This document shows positions 4,837 through 64,000 of a DNA stretch of 64,000 bases, one piece after another (the stretch's first letter is position 1; every line of letters begins with the position of its first letter). The stretch spans positions 23,002-87,001 of the forward strand of contig JALQPE010000303.1 of assembly GCA_030407315.1 (NCBI GenBank), read 5' to 3'. The position numbers and the translations under genes were made by a program. Below the pieces are notes generated by a model that was not told where the DNA came from, ran no database searches, and was given only the letters and a program-made list of their open reading frames with translations. This DNA comes from Asparagopsis taxiformis (lineage: Eukaryota; Rhodophyta; Florideophyceae; Bonnemaisoniales; Bonnemaisoniaceae).

Positions 4837-4844
4837 CCATGATG

Positions 4845-30398: not shown

Positions 30399-30522
30399 GT
30401 ATACAATATATCAGCAAAAACCAGGAGGGAAGAAATTACAGCGGATGGTAAATTAGGGGCCCATATCGGACCGTATTTTATTCTGTCATTTACGAAACTG
30501 TTCGTATACAATACGTCTCTCT

Positions 30523-38217: not shown

Positions 38218-38468
38218 AATTACAGCTGTCGAGCTAGGCCGCGAGCACCCCTATGTCCGGAAGACGTCCTGATTTGAATTAAAATTTGGGCTATTCTCAA
38301 AAACATGCACATGTGAACATGTTTTTGAGATGGGGGTGTGCCGTACGGCACAATCGACCGCCCAAATCGATGTTTTTTGCAATATTTTTTCTGCCCTGAA
38401 TTGTAGAATTTCTGGGCTGGACAGCAATGCAACTGAGCTGGACATCCACCGGGCGTCCATTTCAACTT
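38218..38468 (+). repeat. Terminal palindrome-rich repeat, left end of copy 1
   Basis: After ACAGCTGTCGAGCTAG and CCTGATTTGAATT come an imperfect hairpin (CTCAAAAACATG ... CATGTTTTTGAG around CACATGTG), the perfect 16-bp palindrome TGTGCCGTACGGCACA, and an AGAATTTCTGGGCTGG segment. Related units are at 42,241, 43,556, 54,290 (partial), 54,611, 59,290 and 60,636. Confidence 0.85.
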
Positions 38469-38692
38469 GGTCTTGTATTTTGCATCTGCACGCATAGCAG
38501 CAACCAAGCAGTCAGGTTCACTGCTCGGACGAAGTGCACCTGGAGTGTGAACGATTGGTTTTTGACAGGCGAGTACTGCCGAATAGGTTTCAACCTGGAC
38601 TAATGGTGGCTGGACATGCTGCAATATATGATATACTTCAACTCTGGAACGTAGCTTTATTTGTAATCGAAATGAAAACATCTTTCGTGACC

Positions 38693-41600
38693 CTAATTCC
38701 ATGCTCTAAACGCTGTCCCATAATGAACGTAGAGCTCCTGCCCTGGACGGATATCGCGGATTGCACGTACTACGATGATCTTCGGATTTTCTAGGTCCTT
38801 CGCCTTGAGCTTCTTCCCCGTCGAACCGCTGCTGTAGTTCTCGACAAACTCGACGTTGGCCATCCGCCTGGTGTCTTCCGCCGGAGTGTCCTCACCTCGC
38901 AAATACCGCGGGTCGTTGATGAACTGCGCCGAACAGAACGGAGCCGGAACAATCCAAATTGGATGCTCGATGTTTTCGTCGTCCTCCGCTGTTGCATACA
39001 GCTTGATGGCATACATCAAGAATGTTTCCTTCGTTATCGCCATGTGACCCTCTCCGTACGCGAACCTCATCGACTCCTTGCTCATATCAGAGTACACAAC
39101 AGTTCCGTAGTATGCACATACTTCGTCGCCAACATTAAATGTCTGTTCAGCGAAGAGCCCTCTTCCTGCATTTGGATGCTTAATCAGCGATGGTCGAACG
39201 CTCAATTTTTTCGCAACACAATCGTGTGCCCGCATCACGCGAGGGTTTTCAGTTTGCAACCAGCGGCGCAGGGAAGGTGGCCAATAATGTACCGGTTTTT
39301 CCATGTGCTCGTGCGACGCAATCGACTCTGGGCACAGCTGCCAGAGGTACTGCCGAATATATTTCGGGAACCTCTGGTACAGGGGAAGGCCAGGTGGGGG
39401 TTCGATGATCCTGCGTTCCCTCTGTGTACGCATCGTGACAGAGGGGGACGCCAAGAACTTCTCAGCACTCTGTTTCGCTTCTGTCATGACCCTCATGTCA
39501 GTGTTGTTTGAAAGAATTACACGTGACATGAGAGCACACAGCTTTGGAAGCGATCGTGCCACACACAATTTGTCCATGTCACTGCCGACGAAAACACGGT
39601 GCTCAGGCAAGCTCATAGCTGCTTTTCCCGTTGCGAAAGTGCCAGAGAATGGATCGACAACAATATCACCAGGCTGTGAATGCTGGCTGATCAACTCCAT
39701 CATGAGAGCGACGCTCTTCTGCTCTGCACGAACTCTGACCGTAGCACCGGTTGTGCTCCTTGTTCGCCACACCATCTCATTCGAATCGATGGCGGGCATA
39801 TTGATGGTGACGTTGCACCACGCCGGGTACGTGCCGTCCATGTATCCGTGGTTCCTATAGGCCACCATCTCGCTTCCGGTCTTGAACGGAACACCTCGCT
39901 TCCAGAAGTGGATAGCGACCTCTGCCATGTTCATGCGTTGGTACCTCTTCCGCCCCGGCATTTGATAGAGGTGCCCAGGTAGTCGGACAAACAACAGAGG
40001 TACCTCGTCAACGAAGAAAACTGAATTCCGAACGACGTCCTCCTCCTCCTCGTCCTCCTCCTCATCCGCACTTTCTTCGCCACTGTGCTGCGATGCTTCG
40101 GAGTCCGAATTCATGGACGTAACCTCTTCTTCATCCGACCCGTCATCACTGGCAGCAGCATCGGTTGGGCCTTCTGACTGCGGTCCTTTGTACGTTTCCA
40201 AGTAATGGAACCATTCGTAGAACTGCAAAACGGAGCAGAACACGATGCCGTGGCCACCGGGGCGCAACAGCTCGTCAAACACTTCGATGCTAGCCTGCAT
40301 ATCTTCTGCAGTTAGCCTGTCGTACGAAGAGTTGGAATCGTTCCTCTTACGACGAACATTGTAGGGCGGATCAGTCAGAATGAGCTGAACGTTGCCCGTG
40401 ATGGGCACGTGTTCTCGGCTCTCGTCGGCACTGACCAAATCTTCGAAAGGGACGTCGTACACCCGGCAATACTGACTCATTTTCGAAAGAAAGTCCTTTG
40501 CGAGAGCCTGCCCTTCACTTTCCTGCTCTTCTGTCGCATGGGGTGACGGTGACGGGGGAGACGGCCCTTGGGCAGTAAGACTGGTCCTCCCAGGTCCAAG
40601 TTGAAGCCTGGTTGTGTGTCTTGTCGACGGAACCAAACCTCTCCCTCCTGTGTTGCGACGAGTGGGAGTGTCATCAACCGGCTTGGGGACCTTTTCTGCG
40701 TCCGCGGCTTGTGGTGCCGGGCGGAGGACAGCCATAACGTCTTCGTCGAGGGTGTCAAAGTACGCTGGCAGCTTGTCCGGATTTCCGCTTGACAAGTATA
40801 TTTCCAGCGCCCCCCAGCGGTCGGACTCCGGCCAGGTGTACAGGTCCGGGTTGACGATAAGAAACTGCAACCGGTCGAAGAACTTCCTCACAAGGTCCCT
40901 AAATGCACTGTGCTGCGCACTGGTTCTTGTCTCTACTTTTCCACCATATCCATCAGGATGAGATAGGGGAGCTTTGTCGTGGTAGAGATCTAGCTTCTGC
41001 TCCATCGGTGCGAATAGACCTTCATCGAGCACGTCAAACCAATGCTCACTGCTGTCGAAAATGATGTACGGCGCCATCAACTCTTCGAAGCTGGAAAACT
41101 TTGCGGCGAAGGCCACATCGGTCCAAGCATGGTATAAAACTTGAACCACGTAACAAGCTCGATTAGTGCTTTTCCGATGGGCTGGGACGCGTGCGGCTTC
41201 GTTCCCCTCTTCGGCCGCGTCGCCTATTCGGCGACGCGGCAGGTTCTTGTTGTGATTTCGGATGATAGACAACGCTTGGAAATACATCAATACCTCGAAC
41301 GTTTCCGGTGGAGCAAGAACGAAGGCGCTTGGTTCCCCGCGCTGCGGCGCCTGTAGTGGCGAAGGAAGCATGTTACATCCAATAAGGAAGGTCTGCGGCA
41401 CGATCCCAGAAAGGATGCAGTGCTCAACCCATTGCCCGATACGCTCATCCTGTCTTGAAAACTCGGCAATCGGTAATGCCAGACGAACAATCTGCTTGGC
41501 TCGCTCAACGTTCATCTCTGCCATGACGATTTCGGCAACATCCGCCTCGACTCCAGCATTCTTCGAACGACCGCTGAAGGCCATGCTGAGTCGACCTTGC

Positions 41601-41890
41601 AGCGCCAGAAATTGTTCTTCCGTGCCCTGCGCAACCCAAGCGCCAAGGTCCGCGTATGTGAAACCTCCCGGCTTGTCCGTCAAGTCTGCGAAACTTGAGT
41701 GGGCGAATAAATCCAGCAAGAGGCGGAGGAAGTCTTTGCCAGCGAGAGTAGTTTCGCGGGCGGCGCGACCTACGTTTCGACGTGTACCCATGTCACTAGA
41801 ATCCTCCCAAGGGCTAGCGGGTTCGCGCAGAATTGGCACGGTTGCGTCGTCAACGATCGGATTGCTGTTGCGCCTGCGCTTATTCGTCAT
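38693..41890 (-). CDS. DNA amino-methyltransferase fused to a SET domain
   Basis: 1,065 residues, intact. It starts MTNKRRRNSNP, with a basic cluster likely to act in nuclear import. Residues 1-480 are helical with no recognised domain. The methyltransferase starts near 480: motif IV is ILTDPPYNVRRKR at about 505, and the AdoMet-binding motif I, VVDPFSGTFATGKAA, at about 744. Motif IV before motif I is the order of bacterial and phage beta-class N6-adenine/N4-cytosine methyltransferases. A strongly acidic insert of about 50 residues (about 570-620, DEEEDEEEED) lies between them. Residues about 905-1,065 are a SET domain: GRGLFAEQTF, then SAQFINDPRYL in place of the usual NHS motif, then GQELYVHYGTAF. 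The substrates of both halves are unknown. Confidence 0.88.
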   Translation of the reverse strand: MTNKRRRNSNPIVDDATVPILREPASPWEDSSDMGTRRNVGRAARETTLAGKDFLRLLLDLFAHSSFADLTDKPGGFTYADLGAWVAQGTEEQFLALQGRLSMAFSGRSKNAGVEADVAEIVMAEMNVERAKQIVRLALPIAEFSRQDERIGQWVEHCILSGIVPQTFLIGCNMLPSPLQAPQRGEPSAFVLAPPETFEVLMYFQALSIIRNHNKNLPRRRIGDAAEEGNEAARVPAHRKSTNRACYVVQVLYHAWTDVAFAAKFSSFEELMAPYIIFDSSEHWFDVLDEGLFAPMEQKLDLYHDKAPLSHPDGYGGKVETRTSAQHSAFRDLVRKFFDRLQFLIVNPDLYTWPESDRWGALEIYLSSGNPDKLPAYFDTLDEDVMAVLRPAPQAADAEKVPKPVDDTPTRRNTGGRGLVPSTRHTTRLQLGPGRTSLTAQGPSPPSPSPHATEEQESEGQALAKDFLSKMSQYCRVYDVPFEDLVSADESREHVPITGNVQLILTDPPYNVRRKRNDSNSSYDRLTAEDMQASIEVFDELLRPGGHGIVFCSVLQFYEWFHYLETYKGPQSEGPTDAAASDDGSDEEEVTSMNSDSEASQHSGEESADEEEDEEEEDVVRNSVFFVDEVPLLFVRLPGHLYQMPGRKRYQRMNMAEVAIHFWKRGVPFKTGSEMVAYRNHGYMDGTYPAWCNVTINMPAIDSNEMVWRTRSTTGATVRVRAEQKSVALMMELISQHSQPGDIVVDPFSGTFATGKAAMSLPEHRVFVGSDMDKLCVARSLPKLCALMSRVILSNNTDMRVMTEAKQSAEKFLASPSVTMRTQRERRIIEPPPGLPLYQRFPKYIRQYLWQLCPESIASHEHMEKPVHYWPPSLRRWLQTENPRVMRAHDCVAKKLSVRPSLIKHPNAGRGLFAEQTFNVGDEVCAYYGTVVYSDMSKESMRFAYGEGHMAITKETFLMYAIKLYATAEDDENIEHPIWIVPAPFCSAQFINDPRYLRGEDTPAEDTRRMANVEFVENYSSGSTGKKLKAKDLENPKIIVVRAIRDIRPGQELYVHYGTAFRAWN

Positions 41891-42240
41891 AATGGAATGA
41901 GTGGAAATTCGGTACAGGATGGCGACCGCTCGGCGAGACAGTCAAATTTGACGACGTATCTCGTGACGTTTGCACTCTTTCGTGAGGAACACTGGTTGAT
42001 ATCGAACGGAACAGAGTATACGGGTACACAGCACTGGAAAGGTCTTGAAACCCGTAACCGGTGTAGGTAATAAGTTGTGACGGATACGTGGTAGAGAAAA
42101 ATTTTAAAAAGATTGTGATTCCCTGTCTTTGAGTGTTGTACTGCACGGCCGCCATGGCGGCTGTGACTGCAGTCACATAGGTTGTCACAGGTGCATCACG
42201 CTTACCAGGTGAGCGACATCCGGACGGCCACTGGACATGG

Positions 42241-42419
42241 GGATGTCCAGCTCAGATGCATTGCTGGCCAGACCAGAAATTCTACAATTTCGGGCAGAAA
42301 AAATATTGCAAAAAACATCGATTTCGGCGGTCGATTGTGCCGTACGGCACATCCCCATCTCAAAAACATGTTCACATGTGCATGTTTTGAGAATAGCCCA
42401 AATTTGAATTCAAATCAGG
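42241..42419 (-). repeat. Internal copy of the palindrome-rich repeat (copy 1)
   Basis: In reverse orientation relative to 38,218, running from GGATGTCCAGCTCAG to CAAATCAGG. It lacks the outer ACAGCTGTC part. It lies just upstream of the methyltransferase-SET start, so it may be part of its promoter or an operator-like site. Confidence 0.85.
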
Positions 42420-43555
42420 ATGCAGATATTCGTCTTCTAGCATTGTCAGAACACATTCGTATAACCACATTTGGAGAACCTGAGCCCAGAGCTATCGGTT
42501 TTGGCGGGAGCTAAGCCATATCTCATATAATCAGTAACTACTTCCCGCCAGCTGAGTGGTGGAACCCCTGCTATTTCTACCAACGAGACATACGGGGTGT
42601 CAACTCGGCAATCGTATATGATTCGGGTGCTAAATTTATTCAAGAGACGAATGGGCTTCGAAAAGGAGCCCAACAACGTCTTCTTGTGATCCATGGGTAT
42701 AAGACTACTCTATTCTTCTCCAGGCTTCCACCATAGTCTCCTCCACCTCCGTTAATGGAAAGAATATCCGAACCGCACCTCAACATGTTCTTCCTGTGAT
42801 CCATGGGTACTGACATCTCACATGCTCTCCAGGCTTCCACCATAGCCTCCTCCACCTCCGTTAATGGAAAGAATATCCGAACCGCACCTGAACATGTTTT
42901 TCTTCTCATCCATGGGTACTGACATCTCACATGTTCAACATGTGAGACGTCAGTACCGGAGAAGTTCTCCAGGCTTCCTCCGTAACCACCTCCTCCACCT
43001 CCGTCTGTGGGAATCAACACGACATCACCACTGCGTCTTACCTCACATCCACATCTCTCCGGGATGAAAACGGACGGACTACATAGGGTTTGTTCCGCTC
43101 CGTAGACGTTTAGAATCTTGTTAGAAAAAAGTAAACGAAAGAGAACTTCTCTTTCATTGAATGACATCTCGTCCCTGTCGCAATATGTTCCATTTTCAAT
43201 TTCTCGGGTTGCACACCCATCATGGGTGATCAAGGCCTGGATCGAACCCTCCGAGGGTCTTCGATGGATAGGACAGATAGTGGAAGGCTTTTAAGCCTGT
43301 GACCAAGCGGCTATTGATTGGTTGGAGGAAGGAAATTACAGAGGAAATATAGCTGAGTACGGTGCTCGCGATAGCTGTTAGGTTAAAGTCAAATATGTTT
43401 TTCGATTATTTTTCGTACGGAAATGCCTTGGAAAAGACGATGCTTTGTCGTTCTCTTGGAGGGAGTCCGTTGCATTGCACTCAATTCGAGAGCATCGTCA
43501 TGAAGGAGAGGATTCTTTCTGCTTGTTAGAATCGGTTTAGAGCAGATAGCTATTG
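42420..43555. other. Divergent central region with hairpins and tandem repeat
   Basis: No gene supported. CTCCAGGCTTCCACCATAGxCTCC recurs at 42,718 and 42,827 (109-bp period), and again more degenerately at 42,967. A 41-bp hairpin at 42,916-42,956 has 20-bp arms with one mismatch. The mirrored region is 59,531-60,635. Probably holds the divergent promoters for the methyltransferase and ParB genes. Confidence 0.55.
42916..42956. repeat. 41-bp hairpin in the central region
   Basis: Arms GTACTGACATCTCACATGTT and AACATGTGAGACGTCAGTAC around one C, with one mismatch. The counterpart at 60,107-60,147 has the same structure. Confidence 0.8.
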
Positions 43556-43783
43556 CATTGCTGGCCAGCCCAGAAATTGTAGAATTTCGGGCAGCAAAAA
43601 TATTGTAAAAAACCTTGATTTCAGCGGGTCGATTGTGCCGTACGGCACACCCCCATCTCAAAAACATGTTCACATGTGCATGTTTTTGAGAATAGCCCAA
43701 ATTTTAACTCAAATCAGGGTGTCCCCCGGATAAAGGGGTGCTCGCAGCCGCCCCAAAAGCCGTCTAGCTTGACAGCTGTAATT
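43556..43783 (-). repeat. Palindrome-rich repeat with outer end, upstream of the ParB gene
   Basis: In reverse orientation, including the outer part AGCACCCCTTTATCC...ACAGCTGTAATT as in the terminal unit at 38,218. It could mark the original right end of a smaller element (38,218-43,783) holding only the methyltransferase-SET gene, or an internal duplication. Confidence 0.85.
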
Positions 43784-44061: not shown

Positions 44062-46593
44062 ATGGCGGATACGCATTTCAGCAGTTTGTTTTCAACGGTT
44101 TGCGGCGATCAAGTGAGCGCGTCAGCGGAGTCGCGCGGACTCAAGCGCGGCGTCGATGTCGACTTGTTTGCGGGCGTGGACGGTGCGGCTGTGCATATTG
44201 GGACGGCTTCGGTGAGCACTGCTGGTGGCGATGTTGGCCTTCCGCGCACGCTGCACAACCACAAGCTGCCGGAAACTGACGAGGCCGACTATATCGTCGT
44301 GCGGAACATTGCGACTAAGGACAAGTTCAAGGACCTCCCGTTCCCGTACATGTTTGATGGCGCCGAGGGACCGCCGGAGACGATGGGTGGAGCATACGCT
44401 GCGGCGTTTTACCCTTGGGATACTCGGATGATGCGCCCCGCTGCGGAGGATGGCCCTAGCGACATTCGTACCCCTGCTGCAGCGTCAAACTTCAACGCAG
44501 CGACGAACCAGGCCAGCTCGGGACGGATGCCCAGTACCGGTCCAGCAGGCGAAATCACTGGTTCGGGGGGTACGAAGCATCCAGCACGCTCCACTCCGGT
44601 TTCGGGAGGCACGAAGCGCCCTGCTCGCTCTGCCAGAGCCTCCAGTGGAGGCACGAAGCACCCTGCTCGCTCCAACGTCACCGAAGCTACTACGCAGGAC
44701 GTAACCGAGGTGGACGACGAACCGGAGGTGGCGGAGAGCATTCGTGAGCAGCAGGGGACGCAAATTACGGTGCCCAAGTTTGTGACGTCGGATTACGTCG
44801 GAGAAGGAGCGACTGTGTTGGTGAGGCAGCTAGTGGAACCGGCCGTGACCCTTCGGGATGTGAAAGAAGACCACGTGGAGGACCTGCGCAACAATATGTT
44901 GGCTGTGGGGTATGTGAGCTCTTCGCGTATCACTGTGACGGTGCTGAGGTCGCAGAACACGCATCTGCCCGCCGCCACGCGTCTGTTCCAGAATGGCAAA
45001 TTCCATGCCAATGCGAACGTGACCGTGATCGACGGACTGCATCGTCTCAATGCTATGCATAGCATTGCGGATGACTTCACGCGCCTCACCCGTATGCACA
45101 GAACCAAGCTGCCACAGGAGGCAAACCGCTTGCGCTGGGTTACTCAGCCTCTGGATGTGTACTACCTTCGCCGCAAGGACGACAGTGATCTTCAGCCTCA
45201 TGAGATCATCCACAAGAGTGCAGAGTCGAACCATACGACTGGGACGCAACTGACGGAGCGCTCCCTGGTTCGAATCTTGTCGTCCATCCAGCAGTTCATC
45301 CGTACGATTGCTGTTGCAAATAACGTGGAAAACGCTGGCGACTTGCGTGAGTCTGATGTCATCCGAACATTGTTCGAGGCGCAGTTCATGGGGATGATGA
45401 ATTCAACGAACACGGCCCGGCGGTGGACGCGTTTGGCTATAGCAACGCTGAAGCATCCTGTTCTCGACGAAGTGTTGCGTGAGCTGAACAATTCCGAGCG
45501 CCGCAACGAGATTGGGATAACGCACCTGGACCACAAGATAGTGCGCGAGTTGCTGGAAGAAAACTTTGTCTTCGTCTTTCGTGGTCTTTCGGAGTACTTG
45601 AACCCTGCTCATGGTGGACGTCCGGATGGACGCTTTGACGTGAACGACTTCTATACATACGTCCGTCGCGTGACTGCAATAGCAAATTCTCTGTACGCTG
45701 CGTATGGGCGCCCAAAGAGTATTATGCGCAAGTCATTTCTGAGCACAGAGATGGCAATTGGGTCGGTTAAGCAGCCGAAGGAGTTGCAATGGCATCTCAC
45801 CAATGCCATTGCAATGTATAGAGGGGACTACCGGAGCAGTGAGGTTCGAATGCGACGGAGAACCACGCGTTTACAGGATTTGGAAACGAACTTGAAAGAG
45901 TTTTTCAATCCGACATTGAAGAAGAAGACTAAGGCTCGACGCAAACGCCGCCCTTCTGCTGCCAATGTGAGACTCACTCACAAGAAGCAGCGAAATGTCG
46001 AACAGGAGCCTGCTTCGCATGGCATCCGCCGCCGTTCACAGCGACTTCGCTCGACGGGGAGCACACGCCTCGAGGAAGAAGAGACGGTTGTGGTACAACA
46101 ATCCGCCGGGGAAGAAGAGCAGGCCAATGTTGATAAACCCACCGATCAACAACAAGCCACTGTTTCCGGTGATGAGGGTGACGAAGACTCCGCCCGTTCC
46201 CCCGATTCTGCCGTTGAGATTGTCCCCCAAGATAATCAACGTGCTGGTGCGACTCCCTCCAACCAAGAATCTGTCCATACCGCTTCGGACGAGGAAGACA
46301 AACAGGGTGCAGACGAGGGCCAAGTCGAAAGCAAGGGGGTCCGCGAAGTGACAATTACATTCACTGTTCCGGAAGGAGTGGAAGTCGATGAAGACGGTTA
46401 CATCGTTCGTGACTCTCCTTCTGAAGACGACCTCCTGTTCGACGACCGTATGCCATCTCTTCCTGATGATTTCGAAGTCAAAGACCGAGCCGAAGGGCAT
46501 CATCTGGCGCAGCGTCCCGCGGACATCATCGCATCGGTGAGGGTTGGCTGTCTGCCCCCGATTGGGCTCAGGTTGTTATTGGAGAGTGTGTAA
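44062..46593 (+). CDS. ParB/sulfiredoxin-like domain protein of the element
   Basis: 843 residues from the ATG in AACAACCATGGCG, chosen over an upstream in-frame ATG at 43,939 because of its strong context. Residues about 168-206 hold three near-repeats of SGGTKHPARS. Residues about 240-400 contain a ParB/Srx-like domain with VIDGLHRLNAMHSI, matching the D-G-x-H-R-x-x-A signature of ParB-type DNA-binding/nuclease domains, preceded by the family's LxxLxxx-type helix (VEDLRNNMLAVG). A helical middle is followed by a basic cluster (KKKTKARRKRRPS, about 620) and a long acidic tail. It is divergent from the methyltransferase-SET gene and followed in the same frame, after one TAA, by the dioxygenase gene. 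Such ParB-methyltransferase pairs are common in phages. Confidence 0.8.
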   Translation: MADTHFSSLFSTVCGDQVSASAESRGLKRGVDVDLFAGVDGAAVHIGTASVSTAGGDVGLPRTLHNHKLPETDEADYIVVRNIATKDKFKDLPFPYMFDGAEGPPETMGGAYAAAFYPWDTRMMRPAAEDGPSDIRTPAAASNFNAATNQASSGRMPSTGPAGEITGSGGTKHPARSTPVSGGTKRPARSARASSGGTKHPARSNVTEATTQDVTEVDDEPEVAESIREQQGTQITVPKFVTSDYVGEGATVLVRQLVEPAVTLRDVKEDHVEDLRNNMLAVGYVSSSRITVTVLRSQNTHLPAATRLFQNGKFHANANVTVIDGLHRLNAMHSIADDFTRLTRMHRTKLPQEANRLRWVTQPLDVYYLRRKDDSDLQPHEIIHKSAESNHTTGTQLTERSLVRILSSIQQFIRTIAVANNVENAGDLRESDVIRTLFEAQFMGMMNSTNTARRWTRLAIATLKHPVLDEVLRELNNSERRNEIGITHLDHKIVRELLEENFVFVFRGLSEYLNPAHGGRPDGRFDVNDFYTYVRRVTAIANSLYAAYGRPKSIMRKSFLSTEMAIGSVKQPKELQWHLTNAIAMYRGDYRSSEVRMRRRTTRLQDLETNLKEFFNPTLKKKTKARRKRRPSAANVRLTHKKQRNVEQEPASHGIRRRSQRLRSTGSTRLEEEETVVVQQSAGEEEQANVDKPTDQQQATVSGDEGDEDSARSPDSAVEIVPQDNQRAGATPSNQESVHTASDEEDKQGADEGQVESKGVREVTITFTVPEGVEVDEDGYIVRDSPSEDDLLFDDRMPSLPDDFEVKDRAEGHHLAQRPADIIASVRVGCLPPIGLRLLLESV

Positions 46594-47632
46594 ATCGATG
46601 AAGCGGGCAGGGAGGTGAGATATTTGAAGAAAGTGGCAATAGACCCTGTGTTCGAGGGGCTGCATATTCCGGAAGAACATCGGGCTCGTGTGCTATTTGA
46701 AATCGATCACGTCTATCCGATGTTCTTCGCAGCGTGGAAGATGGCTGCCAAGGCGATGTGTGAGCCTACATCGACGTTTATACCCTCGACGCTGGACTTC
46801 GCCCAGGTTGCGCGAATGTCTACAAGCTGGAAGGATTCGTATGAGGCCGGCACTGGTATGGCGTACTTCCACAATTGCCGAACGGAAATTAACGAGCGAG
46901 GGTATACGGTGATGCACAATTTCGCGGATGCAACCTATCTCGATACGTCGGACAAGTTCCCATTCGACTTGGGTCCCATGGAAGAAATTCCTAACCAGGA
47001 ATTGTTTCGGTACTTTTTGGGAACGTGGGAGGGGGAGGAGGTGCACAAGGACCCTGGAAACCGGCAGCTGTGGAGTCCCATTGTCAATACAGGGGATGAT
47101 GAAACAGATGAGAAGAACCGGAATGAGGGGAGGGCTCGCTTCACGTCTACGCGCCACTGCCTGGTTGACTATGCCGAGAACGACGAGACGCATATCGATC
47201 GGTTCAAGTTTGTGACGCGGTGAGCCCTGCTGGATGTGTGGTTGGGAATCCTTGTCCGGCTGATAGGGCTGGAGGAGTGCGGTTTACCGGGAGAAAAACT
47301 TGTCATGCCAGCATCTGGGGGACGGTTTTTGATAACGGGAAAGGGGTGTCCTCGGCAGGTCCCACACAATGATTTCCCTGTTCCTCCTCGCAAGCGCAAA
47401 GATCAACTTCCGGGTTACTTTTTTATTGCCAGCGGAGATGACCCATTCCCTATTTGGGTGTGTCCAGGGTCCCACAAGTATGTATTTTCCAAAAGCGCTG
47501 GAATTAGATATGTACGCCAAGACGATGAAGCTGAAGAAGGTAATCGTTCCGCCACGTTCAGTCTTCATCGGTCACGGCCATGTACAACATGCCGGGGCAG
47601 AGCATGTCGACAGAGTTGTGTCACACACACTA
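46594..47632 (+). pseudogene. 2-oxoglutarate/Fe(II) dioxygenase-like gene, 3' end cut off
   Basis: The frame continues from the ParB ORF after a single TAA (46,591). The first segment, to a TGA at 47,221, has an N-terminal region with INERGYTVMHNFAD. The same frame then goes on with GCPRQVPHNDFPVPP, holding an H-x-D iron-ligand pair, and WVCPGSHKYV. After a one-base shift near 47,485 it reads VPPRSVFIGHGHVQHAGAEH, a likely distal-His strand. CACTA element 2 starts at 47,633, removing the C-terminus including the RYHTYF segment seen in copy 2. Both stops are present in copy 2 as well. The fold resembles PhyH-type dioxygenases; the substrate is unknown, and a role in removing DNA or histone methylation is only inferred. 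Confidence 0.6.
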
Positions 47633-47635
47633 CGG

Positions 47636-48180
47636 TGTTGAAAAGGGGGCCTCAGACAGTACGGTGAGACAGTGATTTTTACTGTCTGAGACAGTAAAAA
47701 TCACTATGCGGCAAATGAAAATTAATGCCACACTTGGAGACAGTGATTTGCACTGTCTGGCAGACAGTAAAAAAACACTGTCTCACCGTACTGTCTGAGG
47801 AAGTGAATGGAGACAGTAAAAATTAATGATTTATTCAATAGTTGGATATGATGTAATTTACTGTACTGGGCAGTGTTGGCAGATAGTGTTTTGTATTGGC
47901 CAAGGCAACATGGCCGGATAGTGAAATACGCTGCCTGGGACAATAGATGGAACCAACACGGTGCACTGTCCTGGGCAGTACCTGGAGATAGTGATTTTCA
48001 CTGTCCTGGGCAGTACCTGTAGACAGTACTTTGTGCTGCCCTGGGCAGTACCTGTAGACAGTATTTCGTGCTGCCCTGGGCAGCACCTGTAGACAGTACT
48101 TTGTGCTGCCCTGGGCAGCACCTGTAGACAGTACTTTCTGCTGCCCTGGGCAGCACCTGGAGACAGTAAAAGTAGTGTCC
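47636..48180. repeat. Subterminal repeats of element 2, right copy
   Basis: Same palindromic motifs as 5,531-6,447, but with only six of the 35-bp units (47,965-48,170). Confidence 0.85.
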
Positions 48181-52964: not shown

Positions 52965-52970
52965 GACGGG
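52746..52970. repeat. GGACGTCC / CTAGTATTACTAGG terminal block
   Basis: It starts TCTGTGTTTTCGGAAATGGACGCGGACGTCC, nearly the same as 30,103. Several alternating copies of GGACGTCCA and CTAGTACxxCTAGTATTACTAGG follow. It interrupts the transposase gene. It is probably the end of a DNA-transposon family also present at 30.1 kb. Confidence 0.6.
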
Positions 52971-54289
52971 CGCCGGTTCAGAAATTCAAAAATTTCGACC
53001 CCAGAAATTTCTGCCGCCGTGCTCGACATGGATGTCCGCATCCATCACGGCGACCACTCCATTTTTCCTTGTCGGTCGACTCCAATTTCGTCTTTAATTT
53101 TTTCATCCTCTCGCTCACACCCCCTTCCAGTTGGTGCTCACCTCCCCCGTACTGTACCTCAAACACCCCCAATACCACTCTAGCACGCATTTTCAGCTAC
53201 CTATCCTCGCTTCCACGGTGCACACCTCCATTCCATACCTACTTTTCTGCTCTACCGTACAGATTTCGTATACTAGAGGTAGTACCTTCAACCCCTCTCC
53301 TTCGCCCTCTCCACAAACTTCCCCTGCAGCTTACTCTTCGAAAACCTCTCACTCCCCATCCCGTACCCGACCTGCTCCACCCCTCCCTCCCTCACCTGCT
53401 CCATGCCCCCATGCCACCCGCATCTTCGATACCGTATACACCACCACCACCGGCCCACGCTCCCGCTCCCCCGCCGTCTCCCCAGAAACCTCCCCGCTCT
53501 GAACCACATATCAACCCCCCACTTCGCACCCTTCCTCCCACTCCCCTCCCTCCCCAGATACAATAACCCCCTTCTTCTCCATCACATCCCCACTCACCAC
53601 AGCCAGAACAGACGCCACCCCCCCCCCCCTCTTTCTCCTCACTTTCCTAAAAACCCTCCTCTCGGGCGTTCAACCGCACCCTCCTACGGTCCCACCTAAA
53701 CACCTCCTCCGCCCTCACTACCCCAACACCCCGCAGCGTCTCCCAATCCCCATAATATGCTTGTCGGCACTCCTCTCCGAATCACAATCCAATCTAAGCC
53801 CGCACTCCGTACATTTCCACCTCCACCTGTACCATCCCAAGATTCCATCCCCCCACAGAACACATCCTCATACCAAAGAAGAATTTTCTTCCTCTCATAC
53901 CTCATCCTTAAAACCTCCATCAGCTCCATGTAAATTTCGATGAAAATATATTTCTACTATGCAATCTCAAACATGTATGAGCCTATGCCTTTCCGCTTTG
54001 TCAACCCTGAATATTGGTACTCATGTATTCATAAAATAGGGCCACCCACATCCCTATCCCGTTCTGCAAGCTTTACAAACCACTAGACGCATACTCCACA
54101 ACTATACACAAAAACTACTCGCTATTTCAGACGACGCGGTACACAAGTAGCGTAGTCTCAACCTTCCGTGACGCCTTCCCTGATGCGTACAAGTGCGAAA
54201 CACGTCTAGACTGCTACTACTACGATATAGTATATCAGAAGTGAGTGCGGGAATTTTCGGCACAGGAGATGCTGGGCCACGAAATTGAT
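52971..54289. other. Pyrimidine-rich noncoding stretch
   Basis: C/T-rich on the plus strand, including a C9 run at 53,618-53,626. The overlapping Pro/Ser-rich ORFs on both strands are what such composition gives by chance. No motif, RNA gene or tandem array recognised. It is probably the interior of the element starting at 52,746. Confidence 0.45.
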
Positions 54290-54372
54290 TTTTCGGAAAT
54301 TTTAGAATTTCTGGGCTGGCCAGCAGTGCAATCGAGCTGGACATCCACCGGACGTCCATTTCAGGTTGGTCG
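54290..54372 (+). repeat. Partial copy of the palindrome-rich repeat (inner part)
   Basis: TTTAGAATTTCTGGGCTGGCCAGCAGTGCAAT...GGACGTCCATTTCAGGTTG is shared with 54,750-54,817 as a direct repeat. The outer part with the TGTGCCGTACGGCACA palindrome is missing. Confidence 0.75.
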
Positions 54373-54465
54373 TGAGGGAGTGGGGCGGGACCATGATGAA
54401 ACAAGGACCAAGACCTGTCCCTGACGTGTTGAGCCTGAAATCGACCCTTCGTCAGACGCCATTTC

Positions 54466-54592
54466 GGCTTACAGTTGGTGCTTATAGAAGCCAGTGATAG
54501 CCCTGATTGGGGCGGCGGCCGGTTCCGGCTTACAGTTGGTGCTTACAGACGCCAGAGATAGCCCCCGATTGGGCGGCGGTCGGTTCCTGGGG
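54466..54592. repeat. Tandem duplication, about 64 bp x 2
   Basis: TTCGGCTTACAGTTGGTGCTTA...GGCGGCGGCCGGTTCC is followed directly by a diverged copy (...GCTTACAGACGCC...GGCGGCGGTCGGTTCC). Confidence 0.75.
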
Positions 54593-54610
54593 CCGTTGTG
54601 GCCAAATTAG

Positions 54611-54817
54611 ACACCCTGATTTAAATTAAAATTTGGGCTATTCTCAAAAACATGCACATGTGAACATGTTTTTGAGATGGGGGTGTGCCGTACGGCACAA
54701 TCGACCGCCCAAATCGATGTTTTTTGCAATATTTTTTGTGCCCGAAATTGTAGAATTTCTGGGCTGGCCAGCAGTGCAATCGAGCTGGACATCCACCGGA
54801 CGTCCATTTCAGGTTGA
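54611..54817 (+). repeat. Terminal palindrome-rich repeat of copy 2
   Basis: CACCCTGATTTAAATTAAAATTTGGG, the CATG hairpin, TGTGCCGTACGGCACA, and inner part to GGACGTCCATTTCAGG. It marks the dioxygenase-side end of the element. Confidence 0.8.
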
Positions 54818-55044
54818 TCGTGTATCGTGCACGTCCACCCATTACCGGAAGCAAGTAGGCGATGAAGCACGTACAAACCCAATTGTTCTGCTATTTCTAG
54901 CAAAGATCATCGAGTCTAGAGATGTGAGGGAATCGTCCTGGAAATCATGCTCCAACCCACGAGGGAATGGACAATCTAGTTTGAAAGCATGGAACGGAAG
55001 TACATTATAGTAGGTTCATAGATTGAAAGTGAGAAAGGAGATGA

Positions 55045-56590
55045 TTATATTCTTGATAATTGTTTACTGAAGTAGTAGTTGTCAAGGTATCTAGCCGTCG
55101 GAAAATTGTTCTTCCTCTTCGTCCCACTATAATCAGGATCTCCCGGATCTCCCGGCAGAATAGGCATCAACGGGACCCCACTAATTGTGTGGGCTATAGG
55201 CTTGCGAGGTTCTGTCGTCTTCATGCGCATCATTCCGAGCTGCCCTGTCTTCGGCCTACGATCTTTCTTGACCGGGATGGGAACAACTGTCTTGTGGCGA
55301 ACATTGACAGGTGCCGGTTGACTTTGCCTGGCAGACCGGCGCGGAGCATTGGCGATTACTTCTTCTTCGAATCCCAGCCGCCTGATGAAACCAAACGAAA
55401 CATTGTCGGGAATCGGATACGACGCATTCCTGAAATACGTGTGATACCTCGTTGTCGTGTGTGACACAACTCTGTCGACATGCTCTGCCCCGGCATGTTG
55501 TACATGGCCGTGACCGATGAAGACTGAACGTGGCGGAACGATTACCTTCTTCAGCTTCATCGTCTTGGCGTACATATCTAATTCCAGCGCTTTGGAAATA
55601 CATACTTGTGGGACCCTGGACACACCCAAATAGGGAATGGGTCATCTCCGCTGGCAATAAAAAAGTAACCCGGAAGTTGATCTTTGCGCTTGCGAGGAGG
55701 AACAGGGAAATCATTGTGTGGGACCTGCCGAGGACACCCCTTTCCCGTTATCAAAAACCGTCCCCAGATGCTGGCATGACAAGTTTTTCTCCCGGTAAAC
55801 GCACTCCTCCAGCCCTATCAGCCGGACAAGGATTCCCAACCACACATCCAGCAGGGCTCACCGCGTCACAAACTTGAACCGTCGATATGCGTCTCGTCGT
55901 TCTCGGCATAGTCAACCAGGCAGTGGCGCGTAGACGTGAAGCGAGCCCTCCCCTCATTCCGGTTCTTCTCATCTGTTTCATCGTCCCCTGTATTGACAAT
56001 GGGACTCCACAGCTGCCGGTTCCCAGGGTCCTTGTGCACCTCCTCCCCCTCCCACGTTCCCAAAAAGTACCGAAACAATTCCTGGTTAGGAATTTCTTCC
56101 ATGAGACCCAAGTCGAATGGGAACTTGTCCGACGTATCGAGATAGCTTGCATCCGCGAAATTGTGCATCACCGTATACCCTCGCTCGTTAATTTCCGTTC
56201 GGCAATTGTGGAAGTACGCCATACCAGTGCCGGCCTCATACGAATCCTTCCAGCTTGTAGACATTCGCGCAACCTGGGCGAAGTCCAGCCTCGAGGGTAT
56301 AAACGTCGATGTAGGCTCACACATCGCCTTGGCAGCCATCTTCCACGCTGCGAAGAACATCGGATAGACGTGATCGATTTCAAATAGCAAACGAGCCCGA
56401 TGTTCTTCCGGAATATGCAGCCCCTCGAACACAGGGTCTATTGCCACTTTCTTCAAATATCTCACCTCCCTGCCCGCTTCATCGATTTACACACTCTCCA
56501 ATACAACCTGAGCCCAATCGGGGGCAGACAGCCAACCCTCACCGATGCGATGATGTCCGCGGGACGCTGCGCCAGATGATGCCCTTCGGC
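55045..56590 (-). pseudogene. 2-oxoglutarate/Fe(II) dioxygenase-like gene, copy 2 (has the C-terminus)
   Basis: The same gene as 46,594-47,632 but uninterrupted. The N-terminal part is open from 56,465 to 55,866, then a frame break at HID (one T fewer than copy 1). The core with the H-x-D pair is near 55,700, followed by VPPRSVFIGHGHVQHAGAEH and RYHTYFRNASYPIPDNVSFG, giving the distal His and Arg of the dioxygenase fold. A Lys/Arg-rich tail leads to the stop at 55,045. At the CAC AAG TAT GTA junction copy 1 has T4...A4 and copy 2 T3...A3. Neither is in frame, though a run of T4...A3 would be, which points to homopolymer length errors or decay. Confidence 0.6.
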
Positions 56591-59015
56591 TCGGTCTTTG
56601 ACTTCGAAATCGTCAGGAAGAGATGGCATACGGTCGTCGAACAGGAGGTCGTGTTCAGAAGGAGAGTCACGAACGATGTAACCGTCTTCATCGACTTCCA
56701 CTCCTTCCGGAACAGTGAATGTAATTGTCACTTCGCGGACCCCCTTGCTTTCGACTTGGCCCTCGTCTGCACCCTGTTTTTGTCTTCCTCGTCCGAAGCG
56801 GTATGGACAGATTCTTGGTTGGAGGGAGTCGCACCAGCACGTTGATTATCTTGGGGGACAATCTCAACGGCAGAATCGGGGGAACGGGCGGAGTCTTCGT
56901 CACCCTCATCACCGGAAACAGTGGCTTGTTGTTGATCGGTGGGTTTATCAACATTGGCCTGCTCTTCTTCCCCGGCGGATTGTTGTACCACAACGTCTCT
57001 TCTTCCTCGAGGCGTGTGCTCCCCGTCGAGCGAAGTCGCTGTGAACGGCGGCGGATGCCATGCGAAGCAGGCTCATGTTCGACATTTCGCTGCTTCTTGT
57101 GAGTGAGTCTCACATTGGCAGCAGAAGGGCGGCGTTTGCGTCGAGCCTTAGTCTTCTCTTCAATGTCGGATTGAAAAACTCTTTCAAGTTCGTTTCCAAA
57201 TCCTGTAAACGCGTGGTTCTCCGTCGCATTCGAACCTCACTGCTCCGGTCGTCCCCTCTACATTGCAATGGCATTGGTGAGATGCCATTGCAACTCCTTC
57301 GGCTGCTTAACCGACCCAATTGCCATCTCTGTGCTCAGAAATGACTTGCGCATAATACTCTTTGGGCGCCCATACGCAGCGTACAGAGAATTTGCTATTG
57401 CAGTCACGCGACGGACGTATGTATAGAAGTCGTTCACGTCAAAGCGTCCATCCGGACGTCCACCATGAGCAGGGTTCAAGTACTCCGAAAGACCACGCAA
57501 GACGAAGACAAAGTTTTCTTCCAGCAACTCGCGCACTATCTTGTGGTCCAGGTGCGTTATCCCAATCTCGTTGCGGCGCTCGGAATTGTTCAGCTCACGC
57601 AACACTTCGTCGAGAACAGGATGCTTCAGCGTTGCTATAGCCAAACGCGTCCACCGCCGGGCCGTGTTCGTTGAATTCATCATCCCCATGAACTGCGCCT
57701 CGAACAATGTTCGGATGACATCAGACTCACGCAAGTCGCCAGCGTTTTTCCACGTTATTTGCAACAGCAATCGTACGGATGAACTGCTGGATGGACGACA
57801 AGATTCGAACCAGGGAGCGCTCCGTCAGTTGCGTCCCAGTCGTATGGTTCGACTCTGCACTCTTGTGGATGATCTCATGAGGCTGAGATCACTGTCGTCC
57901 TTGCGGCGAAGGTAGTACACATCCAGAGGCTGAGTAACCCAGCGCAAGCGGTTTGCCTCCTGTGGCAGCTTGGTTCTGTGCATACGGGTGAGGCGCGTGA
58001 AGTCATCCGCAATGCTATGCATAGCATTGAGACGATGCAGTCCGTCGATCACGGTCACGTTCGCATTGGCATGGAATTTGCCATTCTGGAACAGACGCGT
58101 GGCGGCGGGCAGATGCGTGTTCTGCGACCTCAGCACCGTCACAGTGATACGCGAAGAGCTCACATACCCCACAGCCAACATATTGTTGCGCAGGTCCTCC
58201 ACGTGGTCTTCTTTCACATCCCGAAGGGTCACGGCCGGTTCCACTAGCTGCCTCACCAACACAGTCGCTCCTTCTCCGACGTAATCCGACGTCACAAACT
58301 TGGGCACCGTAATTTGCGTCCCCTGCTGCTCACGAATGCTCTCCGCCACCTCCGGTTCGTCGTCCACCTCGGTTACGTCCTGCGTAGTAGCTTCGGTGAC
58401 GTTGGAGCGAGCAGGGTGCTTCGTGCCTCCACTGGAGGCTCTGGCAGAGCGAGCAGGGCGCTTCGTGCCTCCCGAAACCGGGTGGAGCGTGCTGGATGCT
58501 TCGTACCCCCCGAACCAGTGATTTCGCCTGCTGGACCGGTACTGGGCATCCGTCCCGAGCTGGCCTGGTTCGTCGCTGCGTTGAAGTTTGACGCTGCAGC
58601 AGGGGTACGAATGTCGCTAGGGCCATCCTCCGCAGCGGGGCGCATCATCCGAGTATCCCAAGGGTAAAACGCCGCGGCGTATGCTCCACCCATCGTCTCC
58701 GGCGGTCCCTCGGCGCCATCAAACATGTACGGGAACGGGAGGTCCTTGAACTTGTCCTTAGTCGCAATGTTCCGCACGACGATATAGTCGGCCTCGTCGG
58801 TTTCCGGCAGCTTGTGGTTGTGCAGCGTGCGCGGAAGGCCAACATCGCCACCAGCAGTGCTCACCGAAGCCGTCCCAATATGCACAGCCGCACCGTCCAC
58901 GTCCCGCAAACAAGTCGACATCGACGCCGCGCTTGAGTCCGCGCGACTCCGCTGACGCGCTCACTTGATCGCCGCAAACCGTTGAAAACAAACTGCTGAA
59001 ATGCGTATCCGCCAT
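56591..59015 (-). pseudogene. ParB/sulfiredoxin-like gene, copy 2 (frameshifted)
   Basis: The start MADTHFSSLF at 59,015 matches copy 1. The D-G-L-H-R-L-N-A motif is retained near 58,035. The frame is broken at several points, giving separate open pieces 58,758-59,015, 58,373-58,921, 57,825-58,367, 57,258-57,770, 56,688-57,113 and 56,462-56,731. Differences seen include lost bases in CC and AA runs in the leader and a gained A near 58,905. Otherwise very close to copy 1. Confidence 0.8.
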
Positions 59016-60635: not shown

Positions 60636-60810
60636 CCTGATTTGAATTCAAATTTGGGCTATTCTCAAAACATGCACATGTGAACATGTTTTTGAGATGG
60701 GATGTGCCGTACGGCACAATCGACCGCCGAAATCGATGTTTTTTGCAATATTTTTTCTGCCCGAAATTGTAGAATTTCTGGTCTGGCCAGCATGCATCTG
60801 AGCTGGCATC
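60636..60810 (+). repeat. Internal palindrome-rich repeat, copy 2
   Basis: Mirror of 42,241-42,419. Begins CCTGATTTGAATTCAAATTTGGG, just upstream of the methyltransferase-SET start. Confidence 0.85.
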
Positions 60811-61156
60811 CCCATGTCCAGTGGCCGTCCGGATGTCGCTCACCTGGTAAGCGTGATGCACCTGTGACAACCTATGTGACTGCAGTCACAGCCGCCATGG
60901 CGCCGTGCAGTACAACACTCAAAGACAGGTCACAATCTTTTTAAAATTTTTCTCTACCACGTATCCGTCACAACTTATTACCTACACCGGTTACGGGTTT
61001 CAAGACCTTTCCATTGCTGTGTACCCGTATACTCTGTTCCGTTCGATATCAACCAGTGTTCCTCACGAAAGAGTGCAAACGTCCGAGATACGTCGTCAAA
61101 TTTGACTGTCTCGCCGAGCGGTCGCCATCCTGTACCGAATTTCCACTCATTCCATT

Positions 61157-64000
61157 ATGACGAATAAGCGCAGGCGCAACAGCAATCCGATCGTTGACGA
61201 CGCAACCGTGCCAATTCTGCGCGAACCCGCTAGCCCTTGGGAGGATTCTAGTGACATGGGTACACGTCGAAACGTAGGTCGCGCCGCCCGCGAAACTACT
61301 CTCGCTGGCAAAGACTTCCTCCGCCTCTTGCTGGATTTATTCGCCCACTCAAGTTTCGCAGACTTGACGGACAAGCCGGGAGGTTTCACATACGCGGACC
61401 TTGGCGCTTGGGTTGCGCAGGGCACGGAAGAACAATTTCTGGCGCTGCAAGGTCGACTCAGCATGGCCTTCAGCGGTCGTTCGAAGAATGCTGGAGTCGA
61501 GGCGGATGTTTGCCGAAATCGTCATGGCAGAGATGAACGTTGAGCGAGCCAAGCAGATTGTTCGTCTGGCATTACCGATTGCCGAGTTTTCAAGACAGGA
61601 TGAGCGTATCGGGCAATGGGTTGAGCACTGCATCCTTTCTGGGATCGTGCCACAGACCTTCCTTATTGGATGTAACTGCTTCCTTCGCCACTCAGGCGCC
61701 GCAGCGCGGGGAACCAAGCGCCTTCGGTCTTGCTCCACCGGAAACGTTCGAGGTATTGATGTATTTCCAAGCGTTGTCTATCATCCGAAATCACAACAAG
61801 AACCTGCCGCGTCGCCGAATAGGCGATGCGGCCGAAGGGGGAACGAAGCCGCACGCGTCCCAGCCCATCGGAAAGCACTAATCGAGCTTGTTACGTGGTT
61901 CAAGTTTTATACATGCTTGGACCGATGTGGCCTTCGCCGCAAAGTTTTCCAGCTTCGAAGAGTTGATGGCGCCGTACATCATTTTCGACAGCAGTGTGAG
62001 CATTGGTTTGACGTGCTCGATGAAGGTCTATTCGCACCGATGGAGCAGAAGCTAGATCTCTACCACGACAAAGCTCCCCTATCTCATCCTGATGGATATG
62101 GTGGAAAAGTAGAGACAAGAACCAGTGCGCAGCACAGTGCATTTAGGGACCTTGTGAGGAAGTTCTTCGACCGGTTGCAGTTTCTTATCGTCAACCCGGA
62201 CCTGTACACCTGGCCGGAGTCCGACCGCTGGGGGGCGCTGGAAATATACTTGTCAAGCGGAAATCCGGACAAGCTGCCAGCGTACTTTGACACCCTCGAC
62301 GAAGACGTTATGGCTGTCCTCCGCCCGGCACCACAAGCCGCGGACGCAGAAAAGGTCCCCAAGCCGGTTGATGACACTCCCACTCGTCGCAACACAGGAG
62401 GGAGAGGTTTGGTTCCGTCGACAAGACACACACCAGGCTTCAACTTGGACCTGGGAGGACCAGTCTTACTGCCCAAGGCCGTTCTCCCCCGTCAACCGTC
62501 ACCCCATGCGACAGAAGAGCAGGAAAGTGAAGGGCAGGCTCTCGCAAAGGACTTTCTTTTCGAAAATGAGTCAGTATTGCCGGGTGTACGACGTCCCTTT
62601 CGAAGATTTGGTCAGTGCCGACGAGAGCCGAGAACACGTGCCCATCACGGGCAACGTTCAGCTCATTCTGACTGATCCGCCCTACAATGTTCGTCGTAAG
62701 AGGAACGATTCCAACTCTTCGTACGACAGGCTAACTGCAGAAGATATGCAGGCTAGCATCGAAGTGTTTGACGAGCTGTTGCGCCCCGGTGGCCACGGCA
62801 TCGTGTTTTGCTCCGTTTTGCAGTTCTACGAATGGTTCCATTACTTGAAACGTACAAAGGACCGCAGTCAGAAGGCCCAACCGATGCTGCTGCCAGTGAT
62901 GACGGGTCGGATGAAGAAGAGGTTACGTCCATGAATTCGGACTCCGAAGCATCGCAGCACAGTGGCGAAGAAAGTGCGGATGAGGAGGAGGACGAGGAGG
63001 AGGAGGACGTCGTTCGGAATTCAGTTTTTCTTCGTTGACGAGGTACCTCTGTTGTTTTGTCCGATTACCTGGGCACCTCTATCAAATGCCGGGCGGAAGA
63101 GGTACCAACGCATGAACATGGCAGAGGTCGCTATCCACTTCTGGAAGCGAGGTGTTCCGTTCAAGACCGGAAGCGAGATGGTGGCCTATAGGAACCACGG
63201 ATACATGGACGGCACGTACCCGGCGTGGTGCAACGTCACCATCAATATGCCCGCCATCGATTCGAATGAGATGGTGTGGCGAACAAGGAGCACAACCGGT
63301 GCTACGGTCAGAGTTCGTGCAGAGCAGAAGAGCGTCGCTCTCATGATGGAGTTGATCAGCCAGCATTCACAGCCTGGTGATATTGTTGTCGATCCATTCT
63401 CTGGCACTTTCGCAACGGGGAAAAGCAGCTATGAGCTTGCCTGAGCACCGTGTTTTCGTCGGCAGTGACATGGACAAATTTGTGTGTGGCACGATCGCTT
63501 CCAAAGCTGTGTGCTCTCATGTCACGTGTAATTCTTTCAAACAACCTGACATGAGGGTCACGACAGAAGCGAAACAGAGTGCTGAGAAGTTCTTGGCGTC
63601 CCCCCTCTGTCACGATGCGTACCAGAGGGAACGCAGGATCATCGAACCCCCACCTGGCCTTCCCCTGTACCAGAGGTTCCGAAATATATTCGGCATTACC
63701 TCTGGCAGCTGTGCCCAGAGTCGATTGCGTCGCACGAGCACATGGAAAAACCGGTACATTATTGGCCACCTTCCCTGCGCCGCTGGTTGCAAACTGAAAA
63801 CCCTCGCGTGATGCGGGCACACGATTGTGTTTGTGCGAAAAAATTGAGCGTTCGACCATCGCTGATTAAGCATCCAAATGCAGGAGAGGCTCTTCGCTGA
63901 ACAGACATTTTAATGTTGGCGACGAAGTATGTGCATACTACGGAACTGTTGTGTACTCTGATATGAGCAGGAGTCAATGAGGGTTCGCGTACGGAGAGGG
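61157..64000 (+). pseudogene. DNA methyltransferase-SET gene, copy 2 (frameshifted, truncated by window edge)
   Basis: Starts MTNKRRRNSNP as in copy 1. The first break is near 61,510, where GATGTTGCC has become GATGTTTGCC. Further breaks occur near 61,675, 62,570, 62,850 (GG to G), 63,030 and 63,420. TDPPYNVRRKR (near 62,670) and the DPFSGTFATGK segment (near 63,395) survive in separate frames. The SET domain begins near 63,880 and runs off the edge. As written it cannot make the full protein; whether the indels are biological or consensus errors is open. Confidence 0.8.

What the first reader, a model, noticed from the sequence alone, without database searches (positions are those of the whole stretch)
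38218..64000. A 10-kb mobile unit carrying a DNA methyltransferase-SET protein, a ParB-like protein and a 2OG dioxygenase
Seen: two inverted copies share the same three genes, the same palindrome-rich end and internal repeats, and the same divergent layout. No recognisable conventional transposase is present. Known: ParB-like domains paired with beta-class amino-methyltransferases are typical of phages and bacteria, SET domains are eukaryotic histone methylases, and 2OG dioxygenases include DNA/RNA and histone demethylating families. Inference: the element combines methylation writer, chromatin modifier and possible eraser, and may mobilise or protect itself with them. A ParB-type nuclease could supply the DNA-cutting step.
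Basis: partly seen in the sequence, partly recalled or inferred. Interest (0 to 1): 0.92.

Follow-up and report, generated by a model that had tools for sequence, protein, structure and literature searches.

The report
Red-algal jumping gene with epigenetic enzymes
The two inverted copies are pieces of a roughly 20-kb DNA transposon, with its genes present about a thousand times in what is most likely a red alga, that carries its own transposase plus enzymes that look able to mark its DNA and chromatin, so it may manage its own silencing.

Summary
The two inverted copies are real, but the "10-kb mobile unit without a transposase" is only part of the element. The repeat continues left of 38218 to a terminal inverted repeat at 30102 and includes a Plavaka (CACTA/EnSpm-like) transposase at 32638-35031. 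One complete copy spans 20.8 kb. Window copy 1 is cut at 47634 by another repeat; copy 2 runs off the contig end. A phycobilisome-gene contig makes the host most likely a red alga. Genome-wide pattern counts (<=2 mismatches) are 2745 termini, 1020 transposase, 985 MTase-SET and 907 "2OG" motifs, controls 0. In an intact copy the "ParB" and "2OG" parts form one 1318-aa protein. MTase (beta-class N6/N4) and SET pass Pfam cut-offs. ParB and 2OG rest on conserved motifs only: no profile, PDB, phage or plasmid search supported them, and structure prediction never got a slot. A perfect 16-bp palindrome (6301 in the genome) lies beside both accessory genes. Best reading: a giant Plavaka transposon with a self-directed epigenetic module (identity near certain, function inferred). 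Giant red-algal EnSpm elements and ParB-MTase transposon accessories are already reported: a new variant of a known kind.

The parts
30102..30134 (+). Left terminal inverted repeat of copy 1 (GTCTGTGTTTTCGGAAGTGGACGCGGACGTCCA)
   Evidence: Homology boundary; sequence; 2745 such termini genome-wide with <=2 mismatches, control 0
30219..30433 (.). Subterminal 43-bp tandem repeats inside the left end
   Evidence: family D5
32638..35034 (+). Plavaka transposase, 798 aa here, 1013 aa in another copy (L051)
   Evidence: Pfam PF18759 1.9e-24, over cut-off; 56 matches scored in own genome, the window's included
35755..38069 (-). ORF(s) of unknown function, 275 + 501 aa in two frames here, between transposase and MTase-SET
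   Evidence: (no family over cut-off); intact form not seen
38262..38478 (+). Internal repeat 'a' (downstream of MTase-SET) with palindrome 38337-38352
38693..41890 (-). MTase-SET protein, 1065 aa (beta-class N6/N4 DNA methyltransferase + SET)
   Evidence: Pfam; 43 full-length matches scored in own genome, the window's included, none with a stop; relatives P0001-P0007
42241..42422 (-). Internal repeat 'b' (upstream of MTase-SET) with palindrome 42336-42351
43552..43723 (-). Internal repeat 'c' (upstream of the ParB/2OG-motif gene) with palindrome 43634-43649
44062..47634 (+). Broken and truncated ParB/2OG-motif protein gene (1318 aa in an intact copy elsewhere)
   Evidence: copy 1 homology stops at 47634
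52747..52779 (+). Right terminal inverted repeat of copy 2 (element runs in reverse from here; outer C at 52746)
54609..54825 (+). Internal repeat 'd' near the right end, copy 2, palindrome 54684-54699
55450..59015 (-). ParB/2OG-motif gene of copy 2 (frame disrupted; ends read by eye from the alignment with copy 1, the gene's own 3' end lies further left)
61157..64000 (+). MTase-SET gene of copy 2, frame-disrupted and cut by the contig end

Best explanation
This is a giant (about 20.8 kb) Plavaka-type cut-and-paste DNA transposon, most likely of a red alga. Shown: terminal inverted repeats, a Plavaka transposase, a MTase-SET gene and a ParB/2OG-motif gene in a recurrent order, about a thousand copies of each gene motif, MTase-SET near-identical in the copies read, and a perfect 16-bp palindrome beside each accessory gene. 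Inferred: the transposase cuts at the terminal repeats. The accessory proteins act on the element itself. The ParB-like part binds the palindromic repeats; MTase-SET methylates adenine or N4-cytosine there and a histone lysine nearby; the dioxygenase-like part removes a repressive mark. Together they would keep new copies expressed or recognisable as self. Confidence: element identity about 0.95, self-directed epigenetic control about 0.35, exact division of labour lower.
For: Transposase in the same unit. Of 74 exact-motif MTase places listed in contigs up to C279, 26 have a transposase place 6770-6810 bp away in divergent orientation. Motif counts are near 1:1:1 (1020, 985, 907). Termini 2745, control 0. 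C88 carries terminus, transposase, MTase, 2OG motif and terminus in order within 20,772 bp. TSD in 6 of 10 pairs, chance 1e-5. MTase and SET over Pfam cut-offs; 4 of 6 relatives at 27-32% identity show both domains in precomputed Pfam. HxD...SH...H...R and DGxHR invariant in three homologues. Repeat core nearly invariant in 38 distinct units; palindrome 6301 times in the genome, control 0.
Against: No sequence library supports ParB or 2OG. hhalign against seven viral ORFs that I picked by a ParB-like motif aligned the expected segment, but with probability 1.6, P 0.032 (control alignment P 0.67). My ParB pattern matches 0 of 1176 viral ORFs, those seven included, so it proves little. SET has NDP where NHS is usual (recalled). 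Of the four terminus pairs that hold any of the gene motifs only C52 has a TSD. 36 of 74 MTase places had no exact transposase match within 12 kb. No methylation, expression or binding data. MTase motif IV departs from DPPY in 5 of 6 distant relatives.
Confidence: 0.5

Rival explanations
1. The methylase controls transposition itself, as Dam methylation does for Tn10 (recalled): methylation of the terminal, subterminal or palindromic sites tunes transposase binding or expression, and the SET and dioxygenase-like parts are secondary.
For: MTase domain over the Pfam cut-off; the palindrome contains GTAC and is part of the invariant repeat core.
Against: The palindromes are internal, by the accessory genes, and not in the 33-bp termini. 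It does not explain SET or the second protein.
Confidence: 0.2
2. The accessory block is a separate mobile or invertible cassette that lives inside the Plavaka element, using its palindrome-rich repeats as ends or recombination sites.
For: Repeats in opposite orientation bracket MTase-SET. Exact-motif places show two arrangements relative to the transposase: 26 divergent at 6770-6810 bp and 7 co-directional at 7977-8385 bp; and relative to the 2OG motif 18 divergent at 6.8-8.0 kb and 13 co-directional at 6616-6646 bp.
Against: All 30 fetched MTase loci (best-scoring ones) show the first arrangement, so the other looks like a fixed subfamily and not live flipping. Gene counts match those of the transposase. 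Short terminus pairs lack the exact motifs listed, but I could not read their inside.
Confidence: 0.1
3. The module acts on the host or on competing elements, silencing rivals or restricting foreign DNA, and not on its own copies.
For: The methylase domain matches phage methylase families; MTase-carrying elements can carry conflict functions in prokaryotes (recalled).
Against: No nuclease domain was found among the element ORFs scanned; the conserved palindromes sit in the element itself.
Confidence: 0.1
4. The accessory genes are passive cargo with no present role.
For: Both window copies have broken frames; termini outnumber the module genes.
Against: None of the 43 scored MTase matches has a stop; 15 synonymous and 9 non-synonymous changes in 26 copies, pN/pS 0.17 (4 of 30 copies of another length were dropped). 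Both sets are biased: the copies were picked by protein score.
Confidence: 0.1

Closest known systems
Plavaka DNA transposons (CMCT clade), fungal PlavakaA/PlavakaB (PMC12730594, passages seen)
   Same: Transposase family (Pfam over cut-off); inverted termini; 2-bp TSD, as reported for PlavakaA (PlavakaB: 2 or 3 bp); some PlavakaB carry a TET/JBP dioxygenase gene
   Different: Termini here are CGTCTGTGTT..., neither TGT..ACA nor CATCA..TGATG; element is about 20.8 kb; the dioxygenase-like part is fused to a ParB-like part and is not shown to be TET/JBP
Giant EnSpm elements of red algae (Petroll et al. 2025, Bostrychia; as cited in PMC12477816, passages; the paper itself not held; that its abstract names giant Plavaka transposons is recalled)
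   Same: Host group (if the host is a red alga), large size, accessory genes; per the citing paper similar ParB/MTase proteins occur in red algal transposons
   Different: I could not check whether MTase-SET or ParB-2OG fusions are described there
Ectocarpus Sola1-1_Ec32 accessory protein (PMC12477816, passage seen)
   Same: Transposon accessory protein with ParB-like and N4C/N6A methyltransferase domains, transcribed opposite to the transposase
   Different: Different transposon superfamily; there ParB and MTase are one protein, here MTase is fused to SET and the ParB-like part to a 2OG-like part
HarbingerS transposons with a SET histone methyltransferase (only a title in the reference list of PMC12730594)
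   Same: SET domain encoded by a DNA transposon
   Different: Different superfamily; I know of no linked DNA methylase there (not checked)

Membership tests
Plavaka / EnSpm-like DNA transposon | Plavaka transposase domain | tested here: met
   PF18759 86.9 and 86.0 bits against a cut-off of 26.3
Plavaka / EnSpm-like DNA transposon | Terminal inverted repeats bounding the conserved unit | tested here: met
Plavaka / EnSpm-like DNA transposon | 2-3 bp target-site duplication | tested here: inconclusive
   2 bp in 6 of 10 pairs (C52, C14, C90, C49, C12a, C20), chance 1e-5; but 1 of 4 pairs that hold any of the three gene motifs
Plavaka / EnSpm-like DNA transposon | Known terminal sequence of PlavakaA or PlavakaB | tested here: not met
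   CGTCTGTGTT here versus the termini reported in PMC12730594; so neither of those two fungal lineages is claimed
Plavaka / EnSpm-like DNA transposon | DDE triad with C(2)C and H(3-4)H motifs | not tested
   Motifs reported; not aligned here
Beta-class N6A/N4C DNA methyltransferase | N6_N4_Mtase domain with DPPY motif before the SAM motif (order recalled) | tested here: met
   PF01555 57.2 bits vs cut-off 26.7; DPPY then DPFSGT; PDB hit DpnA 3.9e-8; activity not tested
SET lysine methyltransferase | SET domain | tested here: met
   PF00856 29.5 bits vs cut-off 22.4; activity not tested
ParB/Srx-like DNA-binding domain | Detectable profile or fold match | tested here: inconclusive
   No Pfam, NCBIfam, PHROG or PDB ParB match; hhalign probability 1.6 with the segment in register; fold not predicted
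2OG-Fe(II) dioxygenase (PhyH-like) | HxD...H...R motif in a double-stranded beta-helix | tested here: inconclusive
   HxD, SH, H, R invariant in 3 homologues; pattern in 10, 8 and 5 of 3000 shuffles and 0 of 1176 viral ORFs, a test written after seeing the motif; no profile match; fold not predicted
TET/JBP dioxygenase | Profile match to TET/JBP | tested here: not met
   No such Pfam match at E<=10 (remote members could be missed); not claimed as a member

The most novel reading that the evidence does not exclude
A eukaryotic transposon encodes a closed epigenetic circuit. One protein writes both a bacterial-type DNA methyl mark and a histone methyl mark; a second reads the element's own palindromes through a ParB-like domain and erases a mark with a fused dioxygenase. 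So about a thousand copies mark themselves apart from the host genome.
Probability: 0.2. Interest if true: 0.88.

Novelty: new variant of a known kind. Interest (0 to 1): 0.6.

Why it matters
If the module works as inferred, it would be a natural system in a seaweed where a parasite supplies both DNA and histone marks on itself. It would help explain how giant transposons reach a thousand copies, and would give a test of whether 6mA or 4mC has a function in red algae. Even without that, it identifies one transposon family that could account for very roughly 20 Mb of a 141-Mb assembly (about 1000 gene copies x 20 kb; an upper-end estimate, since many copies are incomplete).

Tried and rejected
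Rejected: (a) a simple segmental duplication: 985 MTase motif copies exist. (b) A 10-kb unit ending at 38218: conservation continues. (c) ParB-nuclease as the cutting enzyme: a Plavaka transposase is present. (e) Live inversion of the MTase-SET cassette as the main finding: all 30 loci I could read have one arrangement.

Led nowhere: structure prediction of alignment A3 (ParB/2OG protein), and once of A2 (MTase-SET), met a full queue at every try. A protein search from P0008 found only itself. A strict ParB expression found 0 of 1176 viral ORFs; a looser one found 10, of which seven were used for hhalign. A third expression, written to fit the algal proteins, matched none of the viral ORFs.

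Full report
What was checked. The window is C303:23002-87001 of a 141-Mb, 3156-contig assembly, and the contig ends with the window. Copy 1 stops at 47634, where a different repeat begins that has its own inverted partner at about 1848-6451; a 401-base piece of that repeat had 40 places scored, the window's included, out of 526 candidates. Copy 2 runs off the contig end.

Where the element ends. Other genomic copies do not stop at 38218. Querying 28600-32700 against the genome (40 places scored of 2284 candidates), 37 of the 39 places other than the window's begin at query positions 1492-1505, that is about window 30102, and none reaches further left. Querying 52300-54600 (40 scored of 3508), 37 of 39 other places begin at 429-448, about window 52746. 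The two points carry the same 33-bp sequence, differing at one base, in inverted orientation relative to the element. Allowing two mismatches, this terminus occurs 1359 + 1386 times in the genome, the reversed control 0 times.

The transposase. The ORF at 32638-35031 is a Plavaka transposase (Pfam 1.9e-24). It is shortened here to 798 aa; another copy has 1013 aa. 56 matches were scored in the genome, 55 without an internal stop. The pattern searches list only the first 100 places, all exact. Restricted to contigs up to C279 they give 74 MTase, 95 transposase and 100 2OG places. 26 of the 74 MTase places have a transposase 6770-6810 bp away in divergent orientation; 38 of 74 have any transposase place within 12 kb. 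For the other 36, inexact copies, contig ends and true losses are not separated. C88 holds terminus 1469, transposase 4986, MTase 11779, 2OG motif 18746 and terminus 22240 in order: 20,772 bp.

Copy number. With up to two mismatches: transposase motif 1020, MTase motif 985, 2OG motif 907; control 0 in each. All 43 scored MTase-SET matches are full length without a stop, but these are the best-scoring of 4138 candidates. 26 equal-length copies (4 of 30 dropped for another length) have pairwise identity 99.5-100% and pN/pS 0.17, with the same bias.

Target duplications. Flanks of ten terminus pairs were read. Taking the terminus as CGTCTGTGTT, the two bases outside agree in 6 of 10: C52, C14, C90, C49, C12a and C20. 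They disagree in C88, C12b, C11 and C67. By chance 6 or more has probability 1e-5 (1/16 per pair). Against this, four pairs contain at least one of the three gene motifs (C52, C88, C12b; C67 the transposase only) and of these only C52 shows it. Pairs were made by position alone, so some may be two half elements.

The proteins. MTase-SET: N6_N4_Mtase and SET both pass their Pfam cut-offs; the best PDB sequences are DpnA adenine methyltransferases. Seven proteins were found among the 8000 candidates scored: P0001 at 98%, and P0002-P0007 at 27-32% identity in the alignment. Precomputed Pfam shows both domains in 5 of 7; P0004 and P0006 show only the methylase. DPPY is kept here and in P0002 and departs in the other five distant relatives. 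The second gene: in L043 it is a single 1318-aa frame. Two homologues were found, P0008 (34%) and P0009 (26%). All three keep HxD, SH, H and R in the C-terminal part and DGxHR in the middle. No library match supports either name (the only listings were DUF6027 at E 0.056 and 0.21 and a THO subunit at 0.05). tblastn found nothing in phages (L043 protein) or plasmids (P0009). A comparison with seven viral-contig ORFs that I chose by a ParB-like motif, not confirmed by any library, put the expected segment in register but without significance (probability 1.6, P 0.032; control P 0.67). I therefore call these parts ParB-like and 2OG-like by motif only.

The palindromes. A repeat of about 180 bp flanks each accessory gene (38262, 42241, 43552 and, in copy 2, 54609). 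From the window and held loci 81 palindrome sites were extracted; one could not be oriented and was left out; the other 80 give 38 distinct sequences. In these the core from CTATTCTCAAAAACATG to ACGGCACAATCGAC is nearly invariant, more so than its surroundings. The 16-bp palindrome occurs 6301 times in the genome. I propose, without test, that this is the binding site of the ParB-like part.

Second arrangement. 7 of the 74 listed MTase places have a transposase in the same direction 7977-8385 bp away, and 13 have a 2OG place in the same direction 6616-6646 bp away. All 30 MTase loci that I could read have the first arrangement. This points to a subfamily in which the cassette between inverted repeats was flipped; I could not read such a copy.

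Host. Contig C469 has nine near-full-length phycobilisome-protein matches (two with identical scores, perhaps one gene seen twice) and two part matches in a further 892-aa frame; C931 and C2462 hold one match each. This gene set indicates a plastid of red-algal type (inference; a glaucophyte is not strictly excluded). The species is unknown.

What is in print. PMC12477816 (passages) reports a ParB-methyltransferase accessory protein in an Ectocarpus Sola1 transposon. [quoted passage not shown] 2025, not held; I recall that its abstract names giant Plavaka transposons). PMC12730594 (passages) describes fungal Plavaka with TET/JBP genes and 2-bp or 2-3-bp TSDs, and lists a HarbingerS/SET title. 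My seven library searches (listings only) showed no paper describing a MTase-SET plus ParB-2OG pair; most subscription papers are not in that library, so this does not show novelty.

Verdict. The finding is a genuine and very abundant transposon, but with an ordinary transposase and a larger extent than claimed. Its accessory fusion proteins and palindromes make it an interesting variant of a known kind. The epigenetic self-control model is plausible and unproven.

Noticed in passing
window 1848-6451 and 47627-51868: Another multi-copy repeat with a 35-bp tandem array, present as an inverted pair; its ORFs (1805-3736 -, 49971-52961 +) have no Pfam match. It truncates copy 1.
   Followed up: partly
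window 9518-16502 (-) and 18183-19787 (+): Gypsy-type retrotransposon pieces with integrase and chromodomain (chromovirus-like).
   Followed up: no
G000: C14:6194-17320, C90:32910-44373, C49:13860-25550, C12:264415-275482, C20:598-10639: Shorter intervals of 10.0-11.7 kb bounded by the same termini, with 2-bp TSDs, that contain none of the exact transposase, MTase or 2OG motif places listed; content not read.
   Followed up: partly
G000: e.g. C119, C213, C110, C135: Second arrangement with MTase-SET in the same direction as the transposase and 2OG motif, at near-constant spacing.
   Followed up: partly
window 25506-28913 (+) and 21635-24208 (-): Long ORFs (1136 and 858 aa) without a Pfam match over cut-off, left of the element.
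   Followed up: no
window 61157-64000: Many small frame disruptions near the contig end in copy 2; could be decay or poor assembly at the contig end.
   Followed up: no
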